46,140 nt of DNA from Kutzneria sp. 744 (lineage in GTDB: Bacteria > Actinomycetota > Actinomycetes > Mycobacteriales > Pseudonocardiaceae). Position 1 is the stretch's first letter, and each line of letters opens with the position of its first letter. Below, in pieces: positions 31,482-46,140 of this stretch. The notes below the pieces were generated by a model. It was not told the DNA's origin. It saw nothing but the letters and a program-made list of their open reading frames with translations, and ran no database searches. The DNA is taken from positions 4,407,931-4,454,070 of the forward strand of contig NZ_KK037166.1 of the NCBI RefSeq assembly GCF_000568255.1, written 5' to 3'. Position numbers and translations under genes: made by a program.

Positions 31482-31919
31482 GTGCCCGTGTCCACCCCCG
31501 CTGACGACCAGCCCACCCGCTCGACCCCGCCGGCCGACCCCGCACCGCGACCCACACGGCGGGCGTTCACCCCCGAGTACAAGCTGGCGATCGTCACCGA
31601 GTACGAGAACGCCCCCAACGGCGAGAAAGGCGCGATCCTCCGCAGGGAAGGCCTGTACTCCTCCCACGTCATCGAATGGACACGAGCCCGCGACGCCGGC
31701 GCCCTGACCACCGGACCCACAGACCCCGCCGCCCCTGCCCGGCGCCCCAAGAAGACAGCCGAGCAGATCGAGCTGGACAAACTCCGCCGCCGCAACGCAC
31801 AACTGGAAGCCGACCTCACCAAGACCCGACTCGCGCTGGACATCATGGGAAAAGCACACGCACTCTTGGAAGAACTCTCCGAGAGTGCGGACACCGACGA
31901 GCCGCCGACGACATCATGA
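31482..31919 (+). CDS. IS3-family transposase OrfA
   Basis: 145 residues. RAFTPEYKLAIVTEYENA and GAILRREGLYSSHVIEWTRA are the helix-turn-helix that binds the element's ends; TAEQIELDKLRRRNAQLEADL is the leucine-zipper coiled coil. GTG 31482 has GGAG 6 bases upstream. Its stop overlaps the orfB start (ATGA). Confidence 0.88.
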   Translation: MPVSTPADDQPTRSTPPADPAPRPTRRAFTPEYKLAIVTEYENAPNGEKGAILRREGLYSSHVIEWTRARDAGALTTGPTDPAAPARRPKKTAEQIELDKLRRRNAQLEADLTKTRLALDIMGKAHALLEELSESADTDEPPTTS

Positions 31920-32924
31920 CGACCGCGTTCACCGAGCTGCGCGACGCCCATACCTCGGTGCAGAAAGCCTGCGCGCTGACCGGCATTCCCCGCGCCACCC
32001 ACTATCGACGCGCCAGCCCGACAGGCCCGATGCACGGCCCATGGCTGCCCCGCACCCCACCGCCGGCGGCCTTGGCCGACGCCGAGCGGGCGGCCGTGCT
32101 CGCCCTGCTGACCAGCCCCGCCTACCGGGACCTGGCCATCCCCCAGGTCTGGGCCCGCGAGCTGGACGAAGGCCGCTACCACTGCTCGATCTCCACCATG
32201 TACCGGATCGCCCGCGCCGCCAGGCAGGTGTCCGAACGCCGCCGGCACGCCACCCACCCGCCCCGGGTCCGCCCGGAGCTGGTCGCCCGCGGCCCCAGCG
32301 AGGTGTGGTCCTGGGACATCACCGCGCTGAAAGGGCCCGCGAAGGGGATCTGGTACAAGTGCTACGTCATCCCTGGACATCTTCTCCCGGTACGTCACCG
32401 GTTGGCTGGTCGCCGCGGCCGAGGACGCGGTCGTGGCCAAGGACTTCCTCGCCGACGCGGTGCGCCGTAACGGCTGCGAGCCACACACGATCCACGCCGA
32501 CCGCGGCGGGGCGATGGTGTCCAAGCCGGTGTCCGAACTCCTGGTGGACCTGGGTGTCCTGCGGTCTCACTCCCGGCCGCGCACCTCGAACGACAACCCG
32601 TACTCCGAAGCGCAGTTCAAGACGATGAAGTACGTGCCGGACTTTCCCGACCGGTTCGGGTCACTGGCCGACGCCCGCGCGTTCTGCGAGGGTTTCTTCC
32701 TGGCCTACAACCATGAGCACCGGCATTCCGGAATCGGGATGCACACCCCGGCCTCGGTCCACTTCGGGACCGCGCAGCAGATCCGTGTCCAGCGGCAGGC
32801 CACGCTCAACCGGGCCTACGCCGCGCACCCTGAGCGCTTCGCCCGCCGGCCCCGCCCGCCCGTGCTGCCGGAGGTGGCCTGGATCAACCAGCCCGTCCAC
32901 CAACAGTCGCAACCAGCCTCGTAG
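31916..32924 (+). pseudogene. IS3-family transposase OrfB, frameshifted
   Basis: From ATG 31916 the N-terminal part reads SVQKACALTGIPRATHYRRA and then PSEVWSWDITALKGPAKGIWY with the first catalytic Asp. At CCC 32371-32373 one extra C shifts the frame; the rest (DIFSRYVTGWLVAAAEDAV, IHADRGGAMVSK with the second Asp, NPYSEAQFKTMKY with the Glu) continues to 32924. All three DDE residues exist but not in one frame. The element is probably immobile unless this base is a sequencing error. Confidence 0.82.
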
Positions 32925-40284: not shown

Positions 40285-41559
40285 TCACCGGGCGTGCGCG
40301 ATCATGGTGAGACGGTCCGCGTGCACCACGACGCCTCGGGTGACCGGCCGGACCGGACCGGTCGGGCGCAGCCGCCATCGCCGGGCGATCGTGGCGACCT
40401 GCACCGCCATCTCCGTCAGTGCGAAACCCTCGCCGGGGCACTTGCGGACACCCGTGCTGAACGGCAGCGATCCGGCAAACGAGCGGTCCGGGTCGAACGT
40501 CTCCGGCCAGGAGAACCGGGAGGGGTCGTGGTGCAGTAGGTACGGGCTGACGGCGACGGTGCTGCCCGGCGGCAGCCGGACCGCGCCGAGGTCGACCTCG
40601 GTGGCGGCCTGGAGCAGGTTGATCCAGGCCGGGTACTTGCGCAGCGCCTCCATGATCACCGCATTGGTCACCGGGAGCGCGGCCACGCGGTCCACGGTGA
40701 CCCGCCCGTCGCCGAGGACGGTGTCCAGCTCGGCATGCAGTCGCGCCTCGACCTCGGGGTGTGCGCCGAGCTCGTGGCACACCCAGCCGACGGCGGCCGC
40801 GGGCGTGTCCACCCCGGCGACGAGCAGCCCGACCAGCTCGTCGACCGCCTCGTCGTCGCAGAGGCCGGCCTCGAACACCAGGGCGGACAGCAGATCCCCG
40901 GCGCCGGCGCCGGCGGCCCGGCGCTGCGCGACCACCGAGCGAAACACTCGACGCAGCCGGAAGGCGGCGGTGACGAAGCGCCGGTTGGCGGCGGTCGGCA
41001 GCTGCCGGAGGCGCCGCGGCAGTAGCAGCCGGCGCGGGATCTCGGCCAGCGCCACCGGCAGTGACCGGCGGATCTCGGCCACCGCGGCCGGTGCGAGGTC
41101 GGCGCCGAGCAAGGTCGTCGACAGGGTGGCGAGCGAGAGTTCGAACAGTTCGGCGTCGACGGCGATGCGGTCGCCGGGGCGCCAGGACCGGGCACGCTGG
41201 TCGGCGAGGTCCGCCATTGTCGGCACGTGCTGACGGATCCGGGCGGCACGCAGCGCGGGCGCCAGCTGACGCCTGCGCCGCAGGTGCTCCTCGCCGGCGA
41301 GCGTGGCAACGGCGCGGCCGAACATCGCCCGGACGGCATCGGAGACGTCGTCGCGGGTGAACTCGCCGGCGGCGCCGGTCAGCACCCGCTGGGTCAGCTC
41401 GGGGGTGGTGACGACGTAGGCCGGCACCCCGCCCAGGTGGATCCGGACCACCTCGCCGCGGTCACGCAACGACGTGACGAACCGTAGCGGCCGCCGCAGC
41501 AGCGGCAGGCCGTGGCCGATGACCGGCAGCCGACAGGGCATGGTGGTGACGGTGTTCAT
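40285..41559 (-). CDS. Cytochrome P450
   Basis: 424 residues. Motifs: GEEHLRRRRQLAPAL (C-helix), AGVDTPAAAVGW I-helix oxygen site, EALRKYP (E-x-x-R), ETFDPDRSF, and FSTGVRKCPGEGFAL with the heme Cys near residue 374. A soluble bacterial enzyme is expected, needing ferredoxin partners, which are not in this operon. The Pro after DT in the I helix departs slightly from the usual T-T/T-S. Last gene of the operon; GGAGGAAG precedes the ATG and its start overlaps the MMPL stop by four bases. Confidence 0.93.
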   Translation of the reverse strand: MNTVTTMPCRLPVIGHGLPLLRRPLRFVTSLRDRGEVVRIHLGGVPAYVVTTPELTQRVLTGAAGEFTRDDVSDAVRAMFGRAVATLAGEEHLRRRRQLAPALRAARIRQHVPTMADLADQRARSWRPGDRIAVDAELFELSLATLSTTLLGADLAPAAVAEIRRSLPVALAEIPRRLLLPRRLRQLPTAANRRFVTAAFRLRRVFRSVVAQRRAAGAGAGDLLSALVFEAGLCDDEAVDELVGLLVAGVDTPAAAVGWVCHELGAHPEVEARLHAELDTVLGDGRVTVDRVAALPVTNAVIMEALRKYPAWINLLQAATEVDLGAVRLPPGSTVAVSPYLLHHDPSRFSWPETFDPDRSFAGSLPFSTGVRKCPGEGFALTEMAVQVATIARRWRLRPTGPVRPVTRGVVVHADRLTMIAHAR

Positions 41560-43577
41560 CGCTGCTTCCTCCGGAAGGGGGTCCACCAGGTGATCCGTCC
41601 GAACAGGACCATCACGGACGGGACGAGCAGACAGCGGACGACGGTCGCGTCGACGGCGACCGCGAGGGCCGTTCCCAGGCCCAGCATCTTCATGTTGAGC
41701 ACGCCCGAGGTGCCGACCGCGACGAGCACGATGACGAGGATGGCTGCCGCCGCGGTGACGACCCGCGCGCTGCGGTCCAGCCCGACGGCCACGGCTTCCC
41801 GGCTGTCGCCGGTCCGGGCGTACTCCTCCTGGACCCGGGACTGCACGAGCAGGCCGTAGTCCATGGACAGCCCGAACGCCAGGCAGAACATGAGCACCGG
41901 CAGCGTGGTGTCGATGGCGCCGACCGGGGTGAACCCCAGCAGCCCGGACAGGTGGCCCTCCTGGAACACCCACACCACGGCCCCGAACGTGGCGGTCAGG
42001 CTCAGCGCGTTGAGCACCACGGTCTTGATCGGTAGCAGGACGGTCCCGGTCATCAGGAACACCAGCAGCAGCGTCGCCGCCGCGATGCACGCCAGCGCGT
42101 ACGGCAGGCGACTGCCGACAGCCGCCTGTGCGTCGACGAGTTCGGCGGCCTGGCCGGCCACTTGCAACGGGAGGCCCTGGGCGCGGATCGTGCGGACGAG
42201 GTCCTGGCTCGCGGGCGACACGGCGTCCTCGGACGTCTCAACAGCGAGGGCGCTGGTGTCGCCGACACGGCCGAGTTGCGCCACCGCCACGACCCCGGGC
42301 AGGCCCGCCAGCCGGGACACCACGTCCGATGCGGGGGCCGTGGTGAGCACGTCGATCCGGCCGTTGCCGGTGAAGTTGTCGCGGATCTCCTGCTGCACCA
42401 CACGGGCCGGCGCGTCGACCGGCAGCTGCCTGTCGTCGACCGAGCCGAAGCGGACGTCGCGGAACGGCAGCGCCGCCAGCACCAGCGGGGTCACCACCAG
42501 GACGGCGACCAGCGGTGCGAACCTGATGACCGTGCGCGTCCACTTTCGACTGTCCACTTCGGATGGCCTGCGGATACGGCCTGCCTCGACGCGGGCGCCG
42601 AGCACGGTCAGCGCCGCCGGCACGACCGTGAGCGCGGCGACCGCCGCGAGCAGCACGACGCTCACGCCGACGTATGCGAACGAGCGCAGGAAGCCCAGTG
42701 GGAACAGGAACAGGGTGCCGAGCGACACCGCGACGGTGGCCGCGGAGAACACGACAGTGCGGCCGGCCGTCAGCATCGCGCGGCGGACAGCGTCGGGACG
42801 CGGTCTCTCCTCACGGAACCGCCGCACGATGAACAACGCGTAGTCGATCGCGAGCCCGAGCCCGAGAGCGACGCTCAGCTCCTGGGCGAAGATCGAGAGA
42901 TCGGCGAACTCACTGACCGCCCGCAGCACGGCGCCGGTACCCAGCATGGCGATCGCGCCGACCACGAGCGGCAGCAACGCGGTGACCACGCTGCCGAACA
43001 CCAGGACGAGCACGACCAGCGTCAACGGCAGCGAAAGCAGTTCCGCGCGGGTCAGGTCGTCGGCGATCGTGTGACGCGCCTGGTCCGCCACCGCGGCCTG
43101 GCCGCCGGTGCGCACCAGCACGCTGCCGTGGCGGCCGTCGTAAGCGACAGCCAGCTGCGCGGACCGGTCGGCCGCCGCTAGTTCGGACCCGGTGATCCGG
43201 GCGGTGATCAACGCCTGCCGTCCATCGCGCGAGCGCAGCGCCGTCTCCCGGCCCAGCCAGTACGACGTGACGCCCGTGACGGACGTCTCGCCGGCCAGCC
43301 GCTTGGCGACGGCGGACCCGTCCGCGGCGCAGGCCGGTTCGTCCACACCGCGGGCGCAGTCCACGAGCAGGACGAGGTTCGGGTTGCTGGTGGGGAATTC
43401 CGTCGACAGCGTGCGGGCGGCCACCGACGAGGAAGCCGCCGGATCCGTCGCGCCCAGACCATGGAGCCGGTCAGCCACGTCGTGGCCGCAGGCGACGGAC
43501 AGGAGCAGGAACACCGCCGCGCCGGCGAGCACGGTGCGGGGCCGGGACACGGTGAGGTCGGCCAGACGGTTGAGCAA
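41556..43577 (-). CDS. MMPL/RND-type exporter
   Basis: 673 residues. One helix, an extracytoplasmic loop (SNPNLVLLVDCARGVDEPAC), five helices with GLGLAIDYALFIVRRFREE, a second loop, and five helices with FGLSMDYGLLVQSRVQEEY: the twofold MMPL plan with the conserved D-Y in helix 4 and helix 10 regions. The proton-driven pump probably moves lipid-like or polyketide products. Start is probably TTG 43577, 7 bases behind GGGAG; no ATG or GTG fits between the previous stop and the first helix. 17 bases follow the UbiA stop. Confidence 0.88.
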   Translation of the reverse strand: MLNRLADLTVSRPRTVLAGAAVFLLLSVACGHDVADRLHGLGATDPAASSSVAARTLSTEFPTSNPNLVLLVDCARGVDEPACAADGSAVAKRLAGETSVTGVTSYWLGRETALRSRDGRQALITARITGSELAAADRSAQLAVAYDGRHGSVLVRTGGQAAVADQARHTIADDLTRAELLSLPLTLVVLVLVFGSVVTALLPLVVGAIAMLGTGAVLRAVSEFADLSIFAQELSVALGLGLAIDYALFIVRRFREERPRPDAVRRAMLTAGRTVVFSAATVAVSLGTLFLFPLGFLRSFAYVGVSVVLLAAVAALTVVPAALTVLGARVEAGRIRRPSEVDSRKWTRTVIRFAPLVAVLVVTPLVLAALPFRDVRFGSVDDRQLPVDAPARVVQQEIRDNFTGNGRIDVLTTAPASDVVSRLAGLPGVVAVAQLGRVGDTSALAVETSEDAVSPASQDLVRTIRAQGLPLQVAGQAAELVDAQAAVGSRLPYALACIAAATLLLVFLMTGTVLLPIKTVVLNALSLTATFGAVVWVFQEGHLSGLLGFTPVGAIDTTLPVLMFCLAFGLSMDYGLLVQSRVQEEYARTGDSREAVAVGLDRSARVVTAAAAILVIVLVAVGTSGVLNMKMLGLGTALAVAVDATVVRCLLVPSVMVLFGRITWWTPFRRKQR

Positions 43578-43594
43578 GGCGATGCTCCCGGACG

Positions 43595-44431
43595 TCAGCG
43601 GAGCCCGTAGGCGATGAGGGACAGGTAGCTGAGCAGCACGAAGGCCATGGCCGCGGCCAGCGGCCAGGACTCGCTGGCACCGGCGAAGAACCGCCGGGCC
43701 GCGAGGACGGGCGGCGCGAGCAGCACGACGAACCACGTCGTGGTGAGCTGCATGATGAGCACGACCGCGGCTACGGCCCAGCACAGCGTCACCATGCCGC
43801 TCAGCGTCGGGCCGAGCGCCACCGAGTACAGCCGTTCCCCGGCGTCGCCATGCCACCGCGTCTTGCGGGCGAATTCGAAGTGCAGGAACACGCAGGCGAA
43901 GACGAGCACCACTGGCACCACCCGCCAGTCCACAGAGGCGGTCGACGACAGGTAGAGGTAGCAGCTGATCAGCAGTTGCACGGGATAGCTGACCGCGAGG
44001 CTCAGCAGCAGCCCGTCTCGCACGGCCGGGAATCGGCGCTCCACCGCGGACAGCGCGAGTCCGTAGCCGAGAACCAGCAGCGCGAGGTTGACCGAGACCA
44101 CCGAGATCGGCGCATTGAGCGCGAGGACGCACACGATGATCAGCGCCATTGCCGTCTCCAGCTCGCCGACGCTGATCGCGCCCGTCACCAGGGGGCGGTC
44201 CGGATGGTGCACGCGGTCGTAGTCGAGGTCCTTCCGCTCGTCGAGCATCCGGAGGAACAGCAGGCTGAGCACGACGCTCGCGGCGCGGGCGACCGTGGCC
44301 GGCGACGGCCGCCAGTGATCGCCGGCCACCGCCTCAAGCGCGAACGTCCACAGCACGCCATAGCTGACATAGACGTGCGGGCGGAACCGCGCCAGCACGA
44401 AGCGCCCCAACCGGAGCGTGAACATGGTCAT
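43595..44431 (-). CDS. UbiA-family membrane prenyltransferase
   Basis: 278 residues, about eight membrane helices. LRMLDERKDLDYDRVHHPDRPLV contains the first Asp-rich motif (D-x3-D-x-D-x-D type) that binds Mg-diphosphate. The second region EFARKTRWHGDAGERLYSVALG matches the typical E-x2-RK...E/D...YS-x-x-LG sequence. UbiA proteins attach isoprenyl chains to aromatic or other acceptors in the membrane. ATG 44431 overlaps the nitroreductase stop (ATGA). The acceptor is unknown; the AfsA product is one option. Confidence 0.87.
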   Translation of the reverse strand: MTMFTLRLGRFVLARFRPHVYVSYGVLWTFALEAVAGDHWRPSPATVARAASVVLSLLFLRMLDERKDLDYDRVHHPDRPLVTGAISVGELETAMALIIVCVLALNAPISVVSVNLALLVLGYGLALSAVERRFPAVRDGLLLSLAVSYPVQLLISCYLYLSSTASVDWRVVPVVLVFACVFLHFEFARKTRWHGDAGERLYSVALGPTLSGMVTLCWAVAAVVLIMQLTTTWFVVLLAPPVLAARRFFAGASESWPLAAAMAFVLLSYLSLIAYGLR

Positions 44432-45030
44432 CCGCGCCTCCAGCGGTTCCAGCTGGTGACCTCGGTGACCGGCCGCCGGGGCGCCGGCCCGAACCAGCGC
44501 TTGGCGTAGGCGACGGGTATCAGGCACCCCTGGGTCACCTCGTCGTACGGGATGCCGAGCAGGTCGGCGACCTCCCGCTCGTACACCAGGTGCACGGTGG
44601 TGAACGCGGTGGCGAGGCCTCGTGCCCGCGCGGCGAGCATGAAGCTCCAGACCGCCGGGTACAGCGAGCCGTAGCGGCTCGCGGTCCGTGCCGGGTGCTC
44701 GGTCGGCGAGTGCCGGCCCTGGATGCACGGGAGCAGCAGCACGGGCACGCGTTCGAGGTTCTGCGCCAGAAACCGGGCGGAGTCGGTGTCCGCCGTCCGT
44801 GCTGCCTGGTCCAGGTACGCCACGGAGGCGGCGCGGTAGCAGTCGGCGATCGTCTGTTTCAGACCTGGGTCGTCGATCCCGACGAACCGCCAGTCCTGTC
44901 TGTTCCCGCCGGTCGGCGCCTGCACCGCCATCCGGAGGCAACGCTCGACGACGTCCCGCGTGACCGGCCGGCGCAGATCGACGCCGCGGCGCACGGCGCG
45001 GGTGGTGGTGAGCGCCTCGTCGATCAGCAT
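44428..45030 (-). CDS. Nitroreductase-family flavoprotein
   Basis: 200 residues. TTRAVRRGVDLRRPVTRDVVERCLR then APTGGNRQDWRFV is the FMN-binding start of the nitroreductase fold; SRYGSLYPAVWSFMLAARARGLAT and GIPYDEVTQGCLIPVAYAK complete it. Members reduce nitro groups, quinones or enones, or act as oxidases. It overlaps AfsA by seven and UbiA by four bases, so it belongs to the pathway. It may do the NAD(P)H-dependent enone reduction that other butyrolactone loci give to different reductases (inference). Confidence 0.88.
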   Translation of the reverse strand: MLIDEALTTTRAVRRGVDLRRPVTRDVVERCLRMAVQAPTGGNRQDWRFVGIDDPGLKQTIADCYRAASVAYLDQAARTADTDSARFLAQNLERVPVLLLPCIQGRHSPTEHPARTASRYGSLYPAVWSFMLAARARGLATAFTTVHLVYEREVADLLGIPYDEVTQGCLIPVAYAKRWFGPAPRRPVTEVTSWNRWRRG

Positions 45031-46001
45031 GTGCGTCCCGCCAGGCCGTCGGCGTGCGGCGCGTCCACCGCCGTGGTCGGGAAGCTCAGCCGGAGCTGGG
45101 CGTCGGCAACGGTGCGGCCCGACTGGTCGATCCAACACCACGCCTCCACCTCACGGTCGGCGGCCATCATCTGGACCGCGCCCAGTCGGCAGTGGCACAC
45201 CGCCTCGGCACTGAGCTCGGCGAAGGCACTGAACCGACAGCGCAGCGCGGTCAGCAGGCCGGTGTCCAGGTTCGCGGAAACCGCGGCGCACGCCGTCGCC
45301 AGCTGGCGGAACGCCTCGACCAGCACCATCCCCGGCACATGGTCGACCGGGTGGTCGAACAGCGTCGGGTGCGCGGTGTCCACGACGACGGTGGCACGGG
45401 CGAAGCTGCCTTCGACGTGCGGCGGCCCGATCACCACATTGCGGTCGCACCTGCGTCCGACGACGGCGGCCGCGCATCTTGTTGGCGGCGGCACTGCGCG
45501 CGGCGGTTCGATCGTGCCACGCACCGGGGCCCATTCGCTTTCGGGCAGCCAGGAGAAGGCGAAGTCGGCGGTCAGCACGTGCCGGTCGTCGATCTCGACC
45601 CGGTGCCGGAGGTGCAGGCCGCACAGTCGCCCGTCGTGCGTGAAGCGCTGCACCACCCGACAGCGGAGGACGGCATCGCACGGTGTGTCGGTGACGGCGA
45701 TGGCCGCCGGATCAAGCAAGCGGAGCTCGAACTTTCGCAACAAGAACCGAGCCTCGGCGGGAACCCGGAAGCACTCGTGCGCCACGGCAAGGCACGCCTG
45801 GCGAGCTGCCTCCGCGAACGCGACCGGATCGTGGTGGCCGTTGTCGGAGTCCCCGTAGAACGCGTGCGACCTGGGCAGTTGGACACCGACGTCGATCCGC
45901 CCGCCGCCGTGGTCGAGCAGTGACGTCACGAACACCTCTGCAACCGATGCCCGGTGCACCAGCTCGCGGGGCACGGTTCGGGAGAACGTCAGCTTGTGCA
46001 T
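45024..46001 (-). CDS. AfsA-family (A-factor biosynthesis) hotdog enzyme
   Basis: 325 residues, two hotdog repeats. Repeat 1 (RSHAFYGDS...DPVAFAEAARQACLAVAHE, about 40-80) and repeat 2 (TLFDHPVDHVPGMVLVEAFRQ, about 212-235) hold the conserved AfsA/ScbA signature. AfsA joins a beta-ketoacyl thioester to dihydroxyacetone phosphate to start gamma-butyrolactone hormones or related furans. CGAGGAG precedes ATG 46001. It leads a coupled series of nitroreductase, UbiA, MMPL and P450 genes. No GBL receptor repressor is in the window; it may lie beyond the right edge. Confidence 0.92.
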   Translation of the reverse strand: MHKLTFSRTVPRELVHRASVAEVFVTSLLDHGGGRIDVGVQLPRSHAFYGDSDNGHHDPVAFAEAARQACLAVAHECFRVPAEARFLLRKFELRLLDPAAIAVTDTPCDAVLRCRVVQRFTHDGRLCGLHLRHRVEIDDRHVLTADFAFSWLPESEWAPVRGTIEPPRAVPPPTRCAAAVVGRRCDRNVVIGPPHVEGSFARATVVVDTAHPTLFDHPVDHVPGMVLVEAFRQLATACAAVSANLDTGLLTALRCRFSAFAELSAEAVCHCRLGAVQMMAADREVEAWCWIDQSGRTVADAQLRLSFPTTAVDAPHADGLAGRTC

Positions 46002-46140
46002 GCCGCTCCTCGCCTGGTGTCGACGGTCATCGGCAACACCGCGGATCCGACGACGATCACGCTCCACGGGTCGAGCCCGATGTCCTGCCGCCATGCCCAG
46101 AGCAGGAGTCCCGCGAGCGCCGCGCGCAGGTTCCCGTTCA
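45989..46140 (-). CDS. C-terminal end of an upstream operon gene, cut by window edge
   Basis: The last 50 codons of a minus-strand frame (LRAALAGLLLWAWRQDIGLDPW, then VIVVGSAVLPMTVDTRRG) end at 45989, 13 bases inside the AfsA gene. Hydrophobic character and overlap suggest a coupled gene upstream, maybe a membrane protein. Too short to classify. Confidence 0.45.
   Translation of the reverse strand, partial: NGNLRAALAGLLLWAWRQDIGLDPWSVIVVGSAVLPMTVDTRRGAACTS

What the first reader, a model, noticed from the sequence alone, without database searches (positions are those of the whole stretch)
40285..46140. Coupled AfsA-nitroreductase-UbiA-MMPL-P450 operon: candidate undescribed small-molecule pathway
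Five complete genes on one strand are joined by overlaps of 7, 4 and 4 bases and one 17-base gap, so they act as one unit. The AfsA hotdog signature is intact. Known AfsA loci (A-factor, SCB, methylenomycin furans) pair it with a reductase and a phosphatase; here it is paired with a UbiA membrane prenyltransferase, a P450, a nitroreductase and a lipid-type exporter. That suggests a prenylated or otherwise lipidated butenolide/furan, exported by MMPL. This is inference; I know of no matching described cluster but cannot search.
Basis: partly seen in the sequence, partly recalled or inferred. Interest (0 to 1): 0.85.

Follow-up and report, generated by a model that had tools for sequence, protein, structure and literature searches.

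The report
Salinipostin-like phosphate-lactone operon in Kutzneria
These five genes are the second half of a nine-gene operon, a variant of the known bacterial gene set behind salinipostins (small phosphate-bearing lactones), so the pathway class is known, but its enzyme line-up differs in ways that suggest how the unusual phosphate chemistry might work.

Summary
In detail: AfsA, nitroreductase, UbiA, MMPL and P450 genes, one strand, junctions as stated. The operon runs off the window: four more coupled genes lie upstream (NDK-like kinase, thioester-reductase-like SDR, nucleotidyltransferase, PEP-synthase/Rph-like dikinase), then a divergent PucR regulator. The nine genes recur at 76-85% identity in two other Kutzneria; the core recurs in 80 of 90 loci rows (74 distinct) from Streptomyces, Nocardia, Salinispora and other actinomycetes. 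In Salinispora it is a nine-gene, about 11 kb set with AfsA last, fitting the published spt (salinipostin) cluster. 'Undescribed' and 'prenylated' are not supported; best reading: a phosphotriester-type butyrolactone cluster. It is a variant: acyl-AMP ligase and ACP absent, MMPL and P450 added, an AfsA-nitroreductase pair where Salinispora has F420 LLM-AfsA. The two AfsA types are separate (one clade rejected, p 4e-5 and 0.0016), while the dikinases group together and UbiA allows it (p 0.43). The UbiA has an invariant Lys where the second Asp motif begins (75 of 75). Product and mechanism remain inferred.

The parts
45989..46140 (-). 3' end of an NDK-like gene (whole gene = L006:3920-4786, window-equivalent 45989-46855); overlaps the AfsA start by 13 bases. 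Further upstream, outside the window: SDR L006:4783-5751, nucleotidyltransferase L006:5748-7268, dikinase L006:7265-9772
   Evidence: Pfam NDK 31.6 bits on the unmasked N-terminal part; K33, N143, H146, D149 kept in at least 95% of 75 loci. 100 bases next to the window end are masked. Upstream genes.
45024..46001 (-). AfsA/ScbA-type gamma-butyrolactone synthase, two hotdog domains, 325 aa
   Evidence: Pfam AfsA 151.7 bits; NCBIfam ScbA_BarX 228.3 bits, cut-off 200; only AfsA gene found in this genome; E64, R67, E229, R232 kept in at least 95% of 75 loci
44428..45030 (-). Nitroreductase-family enzyme, 200 aa; proposed partner reductase of AfsA (butenolide C=C)
   Evidence: Pfam Nitroreductase 70.3 bits; between AfsA and UbiA in 36 of 75 core loci; never together with the LLM gene (0 of 5); role inferred
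43595..44431 (-). UbiA-like membrane protein, 278 aa; first Asp motif D64-x3-D68-x3-D72 kept, second Asp motif not kept (E186-x-A-R-K-T; K190 at the place of its first Asp)
   Evidence: Pfam UbiA 25.8 bits, under the cut-off; D64, D68, D72, E186, A188, R189, K190, T191 in 75 of 75 core loci, alignment with the genome's MenA-like protein; AlphaFold2 model almost all helix, pLDDT 95.4
41556..43577 (-). MMPL-family transporter, 673 aa (TTG start; a CTG start at 43598 is possible)
   Evidence: Pfam MMPL 198.7 bits; two G-x3-DY motifs at 241 and 569; found with the core only in the three own-type Kutzneria
40285..41559 (-). cytochrome P450, 424 aa, heme motif FSTGVRKCPG, ExxR, AGVDT
   Evidence: Pfam p450 176.8 bits; motifs; nearest solved chain 3dbg

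Best explanation
The locus is a spt-type (salinipostin/cyclipostin-class) gamma-butyrolactone cluster in which the phosphate is kept rather than removed. Proposed order: AfsA joins a beta-ketoacyl thioester to dihydroxyacetone phosphate to give a butenolide phosphate; the nitroreductase reduces its C=C; the thioester-reductase-like SDR makes a fatty alcohol; the Rph-like dikinase, the NDK-like kinase and the nucleotidyltransferase activate phosphate; the UbiA-like membrane protein joins the alkyl part to the lactone phosphate as a phospho- or alkyl-transferase rather than a prenyltransferase; closure on the enol oxygen gives the bicyclic triester; P450 trims the chain and MMPL exports. Shown: gene content, synteny, homology, active-site conservation. 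Inferred: every chemical step and the product.
For: Conserved core in 80 of 90 loci rows, 74 distinct plus own. Two Salinispora loci hold dikinase-AMP ligase-NT-ACP-SDR-NDK-UbiA-LLM-AfsA over about 11 kb; PMC7888443 lists spt, butyrolactone, salinipostin, 11.1 kb, RS20900-RS20940 (passage). In a quick tree the dikinases of both types lie together against 8 outgroup rows (support 100). No phosphatase family among the nine genes, as expected if the phosphate stays. Catalytic-type residues kept: dikinase H792, NDK N143-x2-H146. Nearest solved relatives: 5fbs/5hv1 for the dikinase, MxaA 4u7w for the SDR. One AfsA gene found in the genome and no ScbR-like receptor with one query.
Against: The AfsA is not in the Salinispora AfsA clade. 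Acyl-AMP ligase and ACP, present in the Salinispora cluster, are absent here. The reductase is of another family. In the UbiA tree some rows from smaller, related clusters (L057, L062, L064) stand with the non-Salinispora type to the exclusion of the Salinispora type (support 84), though one clade of all core UbiAs is not rejected (p 0.434). The role of each phosphate enzyme is a guess. I know of no product for this cluster in Kutzneria. The two papers on spt were not held, so their content is recalled apart from titles.
Confidence: 0.72

Rival explanations
1. Prenylated (or otherwise isoprenoid) butenolide or furan exported by MMPL: UbiA moves a prenyl group onto the AfsA product.
For: UbiA-family similarity, first Asp-rich motif intact; P450 nearest to terpene-type P450s (albaflavenone monooxygenase model 270 bits, under its cut-off of 700; 3dbg, deposited as putative cytochrome P450).
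Against: Second Asp-rich motif not kept: K190 in 75 of 75 at its first Asp, variable at its second; no prenyl-diphosphate synthase among the nine genes; four phosphate- and acyl-handling genes unexplained; same UbiA family in the Salinispora cluster, whose product class has alkyl esters.
Confidence: 0.08
2. Ordinary free gamma-butyrolactone signal cluster: AfsA plus reductase make an A-factor-like signal, the other genes only modify or recycle it.
For: AfsA passes the ScbA/BarX equivalog cut-off, while the Salinispora AfsA falls just under it (183.2 against 200); recalled: the spt cluster was reported to give both salinipostins and A-factor-like lactones.
Against: No phosphatase in the operon, no ScbR-like receptor found in this genome (0 matches at 1e-8 with one query); dikinase, NT, SDR, NDK and UbiA stand together in 75 distinct loci, which were, however, selected for holding them.
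Confidence: 0.12
3. Two neighbouring functions: the spt-type core ends with UbiA, and MMPL plus P450 serve another pathway but share the transcript.
For: MMPL is found with the core in only three Kutzneria; in Kutzneria sp. CA-103260 a transposase-like gene separates P450 from MMPL.
Against: Junctions as tight as the rest; P450 relatives (33-47% identical) lie 0.04-5.1 kb from UbiA in L028, L027, L074, L078, L097 and L057 and are the best match of their genome in these 6 of 6 (genomes chosen because the neighbour had been seen, L057 is not a full core locus); an MMPL 40% identical stands two genes from an AfsA gene on a Rhodococcus plasmid.
Confidence: 0.2

Closest known systems
spt (salinipostin) cluster of Salinispora
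   Same: Dikinase, nucleotidyltransferase, SDR, NDK, UbiA and an AfsA; no phosphatase among the nine window-operon genes or seen in the Salinispora set; same relative order of the first and middle genes.
   Different: Here: no acyl-AMP ligase or ACP; nitroreductase in place of the F420 LLM enzyme; AfsA from another clade and before UbiA; MMPL, P450 and a divergent PucR added. UbiA 42-44% identical.
spt-like clusters of Streptomyces without ligase and ACP (for example L036, S. bungoensis)
   Same: Short form, nitroreductase present in 22 of 23 such rows, same core.
   Different: Nitroreductase after UbiA in most (before it in L041, L052, L063); no MMPL found; UbiA 51-58% identical to the window's in the five short-form Streptomyces rows.
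spt-like clusters of Nocardia (for example L074, L097) and second Kutzneria type (L080, L095)
   Same: AfsA-NTR-UbiA order in these four; a related P450 near many of the Nocardia clusters.
   Different: Ligase and ACP present; P450 not in the operon, often on the other strand; MGT-type glycosyltransferase near some; no MMPL found.
ScbA/BarX gamma-butyrolactone signal loci
   Same: AfsA family.
   Different: The three fetched have ScbR-type receptor genes within about 3 kb (L116, L119, L121) and form their own AfsA clade.

Membership tests
spt-type (salinipostin) cluster | AfsA-family butyrolactone synthase in the cluster | tested here: met
spt-type (salinipostin) cluster | Dikinase, nucleotidyltransferase, SDR, NDK and UbiA homologues in conserved order | tested here: met
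   dikinases together in a quick tree; one clade of UbiAs not rejected, p 0.434
spt-type (salinipostin) cluster | AfsA of the same clade as the Salinispora AfsA | tested here: not met
   AU test rejects one clade: p 4.01e-5, 0.00155 with five long or odd rows left out after seeing the first tree; long-branch warnings in both
spt-type (salinipostin) cluster | Acyl-AMP ligase and acyl carrier protein | tested here: not met
   Absent in the own type; 49 of 75 loci have both, 26 neither, 0 only one
spt-type (salinipostin) cluster | F420-type LLM reductase next to AfsA | tested here: not met
   Nitroreductase instead; 5 of 80 rows have LLM, none of these has NTR
spt-type (salinipostin) cluster | Production of a bicyclic phosphotriester | not testable with these tools
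   Needs metabolite analysis
Classical AfsA/ScbA signal locus | ScbR/ArpA-type receptor gene | tested here: not met
   No match at 1e-8 in this genome with one ScbR query; none among the eleven genes scanned (nine of the operon, PucR, YcaO)
Classical AfsA/ScbA signal locus | Phosphatase gene for the butenolide phosphate | tested here: not met
   No phosphatase family among the nine genes; a phosphatase elsewhere in the genome was not looked for
UbiA prenyltransferase | First Asp-rich motif | tested here: met
   D64, D68, D72 in 75 of 75
UbiA prenyltransferase | Second Asp-rich motif DxxxD | tested here: not met
   KTRWH in the window protein against DIPTD in the genome's MenA-like protein L124; K190 in 75 of 75, position 194 variable (E 33, D 5) (remote alignment)
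UbiA prenyltransferase | UbiA fold | tested here: inconclusive
   Confident, almost all-helical model, Pfam score under cut-off, profile match to DGGGP synthase 6m31 over part of the first half only; fold comparison was switched off

The most novel reading that the evidence does not exclude
The cluster family is modular: a fixed phosphate-ester core (Rph-like dikinase, nucleotidyltransferase, SDR, NDK, UbiA) onto which different lactone-making cassettes have been fitted as units, AfsA with a nitroreductase in Kutzneria and many Nocardia and Streptomyces, an F420 LLM enzyme with an AfsA of another clade in Salinispora and Paractinoplanes. If so, the choice of reductase may set the ring-junction configuration and explain why cyclipostins (Streptomyces) and salinipostins (Salinispora) are opposite at that carbon, and the UbiA-like protein with E..RKT in place of the second Asp motif would be a new kind of UbiA enzyme, building a phosphate ester instead of moving a prenyl group.
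Probability: 0.3. Interest if true: 0.65.

Novelty: new variant of a known kind. Interest (0 to 1): 0.42.

Why it matters
How bacteria build the phosphotriester of salinipostins and cyclipostins is, as far as I recall, not resolved. The comparison here separates genes that stay together across the sampled loci (dikinase, nucleotidyltransferase, SDR, NDK, UbiA) from those that are lost or exchanged (ligase and ACP, reductase, AfsA type), which narrows the candidates for triester formation. It also shows that a product assignment by AfsA alone would misfile this locus as a plain butyrolactone signal, and by UbiA alone as a prenylation pathway.

Tried and rejected
Prenylation by UbiA: rejected as the main reading because the second Asp motif is not kept and no prenyl-diphosphate synthase is among the nine genes. 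UbiA-type terpene synthase: one literature search gave three papers, none on this by title and abstract start (listing only). A described cluster with AfsA + UbiA + nucleotidyltransferase: search returned 0 papers; the link to spt came from the Salinispora loci together with recall. Kutzneria + butyrolactone + AfsA: 0 papers. Further searches on salinipostin and its cluster gave listings and citing papers, not the cluster papers. GBL receptor: none found with one query. Simple vertical inheritance of the whole cluster: rejected for AfsA, not for UbiA. Structural comparison of the UbiA model: not possible. Known AfsA homologues MmfL and SrrX as tree rows: the two plasmid records are not held. 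The masked 100 bases in the NDK gene were left alone; only the unmasked N-terminal part was used as query. The adjoining YcaO cluster upstream was taken as separate because a divergent regulator lies between; this was not tested. The first UbiA motif alignment held rows in a wrong reading frame (L123, L126); it was redone without them, which corrected my first reading of which residue stands at the Asp.

Rows dropped: from the 90 loci rows, six (L022, L023, L024, L025, L026, L028) are the same places as L032, L033, L080, L095, L100, L093 and were dropped; ten lack part of the core (L029, L030, L031, L057, L062, L064, L065, L069, L082, L098; L065, L069 and L082 are on short contigs or at a contig end). 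The AfsA trees used chosen rows: 41 and 40, the latter without L114, L115, L027, L093 and L099 and with the second AfsA of L047 and L055 added. In one search the non-Salinispora AfsAs were not one clade (two changes; one in 21% of bootstrap trees); they were (97/95). The scan kept the best 80 of 137 relatives, so frequencies are biased to close relatives. Absence of small genes (ACP) or of NTR rests on tblastn at 1e-6.
Full report
1. The observation. The five genes are present on the minus strand as stated, with junctions of 7, 4, 17 (gap, TTG start for MMPL; a CTG start would give a 4-base overlap) and 4 bases. Pfam names four of them above the curated cut-off; the UbiA match is below it (25.8 against 34.2 bits). 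The AfsA passes the NCBIfam ScbA/BarX equivalog cut-off (228.3 against 200).

2. The operon continues beyond the window. The window is G000:C1:4407931-4454070 of a single-contig 11.65 Mb genome. Upstream of AfsA, on the same strand, lie an NDK-like gene (13-base overlap with AfsA), a male-sterility/thioester-reductase-type SDR, a nucleotidyltransferase and a PEP-synthase-like dikinase, these four joined to each other by 4-base overlaps. The dikinase has the ATP-binding and the mobile PEP-utiliser domain and no C-terminal pyruvate domain in Pfam; it passes the NCBIfam PEP synthase model PRK06241.2-2 (899 against 883 bits) and resembles rifamycin phosphotransferase and prodigiosin ligase models below their cut-offs. 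Its nearest solved chains are 5fbs and 5hv1-5hv3, deposited as phosphoenolpyruvate synthase; that these are rifampin phosphotransferases is recalled. A divergent PucR-type regulator follows, then a YcaO gene. One hundred bases of the NDK gene next to the window end are masked.

3. Relatives. A search of 150 related genomes with UbiA found matches in 10, the own one included. In a draw of 397 genomes of the order, 11 have a UbiA match at 1e-30, the own genome included. A scan of named genomes with the UbiA alignment gave 137 relatives, the best 80 kept, in Kutzneria, Streptomyces, Streptantibioticus, Nocardia, Rhodococcus, Paractinoplanes, Salinispora, Antrihabitans and Allosalinactinospora. 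Of 90 loci rows, 80 hold the full core of dikinase, nucleotidyltransferase, SDR, NDK, AfsA and UbiA; six rows are duplicates, leaving 74 distinct plus the own locus, 75.

4. Link to a characterised cluster. In two Salinispora loci (L106, L094) the set is dikinase, acyl-AMP ligase, nucleotidyltransferase, ACP, SDR, NDK, UbiA, LLM oxidoreductase, AfsA: nine genes over about 11 kb with AfsA last (families checked for L106). PMC7888443 lists in a table, seen as a passage, 'spt, butyrolactone, Salinipostin, RS20900-RS20940, 11.1 kb' for S. tropica; nine locus tags at steps of five would fit that range. I did not compare with the S. tropica genome itself. The papers on the cluster (Kudo 2020, ACS Chem Biol 15:3253; Creamer 2021, Microb Genom 7:000568) are not held; I saw their titles in reference lists. 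Recalled, not read: that spt9 is the AfsA gene, that the cluster yields salinipostins and A-factor-like lactones, and that homologous clusters are widespread in actinomycetes. The compounds are bicyclic enol phosphates thought to be related to A-factor-type lactones; salinipostin F and cyclipostin T carry C15 and C16 phosphate esters (PMC6681047, passages).

5. What is fixed and what varies. Ligase and ACP occur together or not at all: 49 of 75 both, 26 neither, and the long/short state needs four changes on the UbiA tree (quick tree). The reductase varies: a nitroreductase is found in 55 of the 75, the F420-type LLM gene in 5, neither in 15; no locus has both. Gene order: AfsA-NTR-UbiA 36, AfsA-UbiA-NTR 17 (plus 2 with a second AfsA), AfsA-UbiA without reductase 15, UbiA-AfsA with LLM 5. 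The AfsA of the LLM type does not join the AfsA of the other type: one clade of all is rejected at p 4.01e-5 and, with five rows left out after the first tree was seen, at 0.00155. The non-LLM AfsAs are one clade at 97/95 but not. The tool warns of long branches in both trees. The dikinases of both types together are separated from eight outgroup rows with support 100, in a quick tree with a long-branch warning at that join. In the UbiA tree the outgroup rows are not one side of a branch, and three of them (L057, L062, L064) stand with the non-LLM rows apart from the LLM rows (support 84); one clade of all core UbiAs is not rejected (p 0.434). The simplest reading is that the lactone-forming pair, AfsA with its reductase, was exchanged as a unit; an early split of the whole cluster is not fully excluded by the UbiA data.

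6. Own type. MMPL with the core is found only in the three Kutzneria. The P450 has relatives near core or related clusters: 0.04 to 5.1 kb from UbiA in L028, L027, L074, L078, L097 and L057, and in the six genomes concerned (G109, G096, G447, G448, G449, G450) this copy is the best match of the genome. These genomes were chosen because a neighbour had been seen; L057 is not a full core locus; in G144, with a core cluster but no such neighbour, the best match is elsewhere. In Kutzneria sp. CA-103260 a transposase-like gene lies between MMPL and P450.

7. UbiA. The first motif is DERKDLDYD. At the place of the second motif the family has E-F-A-R-K-T: in the alignment with the genome's MenA-like protein (L124, DIPTD), K190 stands at the first Asp and position 194 at the second. 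D64, D68, D72, E186, A188, R189, K190 and T191 are the same in 75 of 75 core loci; position 194 varies (E 33, R 13, D 5 among others). The AlphaFold2 model is almost all helix with pLDDT 95.4; a fold comparison could not be run. A prenyl-diphosphate substrate is therefore unlikely but not excluded.

8. Mechanism. Established chemistry of AfsA (recalled): condensation of a beta-ketoacyl thioester with dihydroxyacetone phosphate to a butenolide phosphate. In salinipostins the phosphate sits on the carbon that carries it in that substrate (my reading of the structure), so a pathway without a phosphatase is expected; none is among the nine genes. Two new P-O bonds are needed, and the core holds three phosphate-type enzymes, two with the expected active-site histidines (dikinase H792, NDK H146), and one membrane protein. 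The SDR resembles the thioester reductase of MxaA (4u7w, 2.7e-9) and may supply the fatty alcohol. Which enzyme does which step is not shown. Cyclipostins/cyclophostin and salinipostins are opposite at the ring-junction carbon (PMC11095149, PMC6681047, passages); that the reductase type decides this is a proposal, since no NTR-type locus here is tied to a known cyclipostin producer.

9. Signal role. One AfsA gene was found in the genome and no ScbR-like receptor at 1e-8 with one query, so a classical autoregulator circuit is not evident. Against this reading of difference: the window AfsA scores above the ScbA/BarX equivalog cut-off and the Salinispora AfsA below it (183.2).

10. Verdict. Known class, new variant.

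Noticed in passing
L006:11808-20000 and onward (genome 4461807-4471988), upstream of the operon: YcaO cyclodehydratase (SagD type) and large proteins that by eye look like lantibiotic dehydratases: a RiPP-type cluster beside the operon.
   Followed up: partly
L022:6202-7488 (+): Transposase-like (TnpB/OrfB-like by eye) gene between MMPL and P450 in Kutzneria sp. CA-103260.
   Followed up: no
L114:4529-11207 (S. clavuligerus pSCL4); also L057, L062, L064, L098: A smaller relative: in L114 an AfsA-related protein, isoprenylcysteine-methyltransferase-like protein, dikinase, UbiA and an oxidoreductase, without NDK and nucleotidyltransferase. The dikinase-UbiA pair is common to all five loci; product unknown.
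   Followed up: partly
L115:5354-14933 (Rhodococcus fascians pFiD188): AfsA gene with MMPL transporter, alpha/beta hydrolase, HAD phosphatase and oxidoreductases: another AfsA-MMPL neighbourhood.
   Followed up: partly
L047:13983-14990 and L055:13830-14822: A second AfsA gene 2.3-2.5 kb past the cluster in two Streptomyces.
   Followed up: partly
L046, L048, L050, L051, L054, L076 (Streptomyces), L068, L027 and seven Nocardia loci (L087, L088, L093, L101, L107, L109, L111): 15 of 75 core loci have neither nitroreductase nor LLM by tblastn; what reduces the butenolide there is unknown.
   Followed up: no
window 31482-32924: Pieces that look like a transposase by eye.
   Followed up: no
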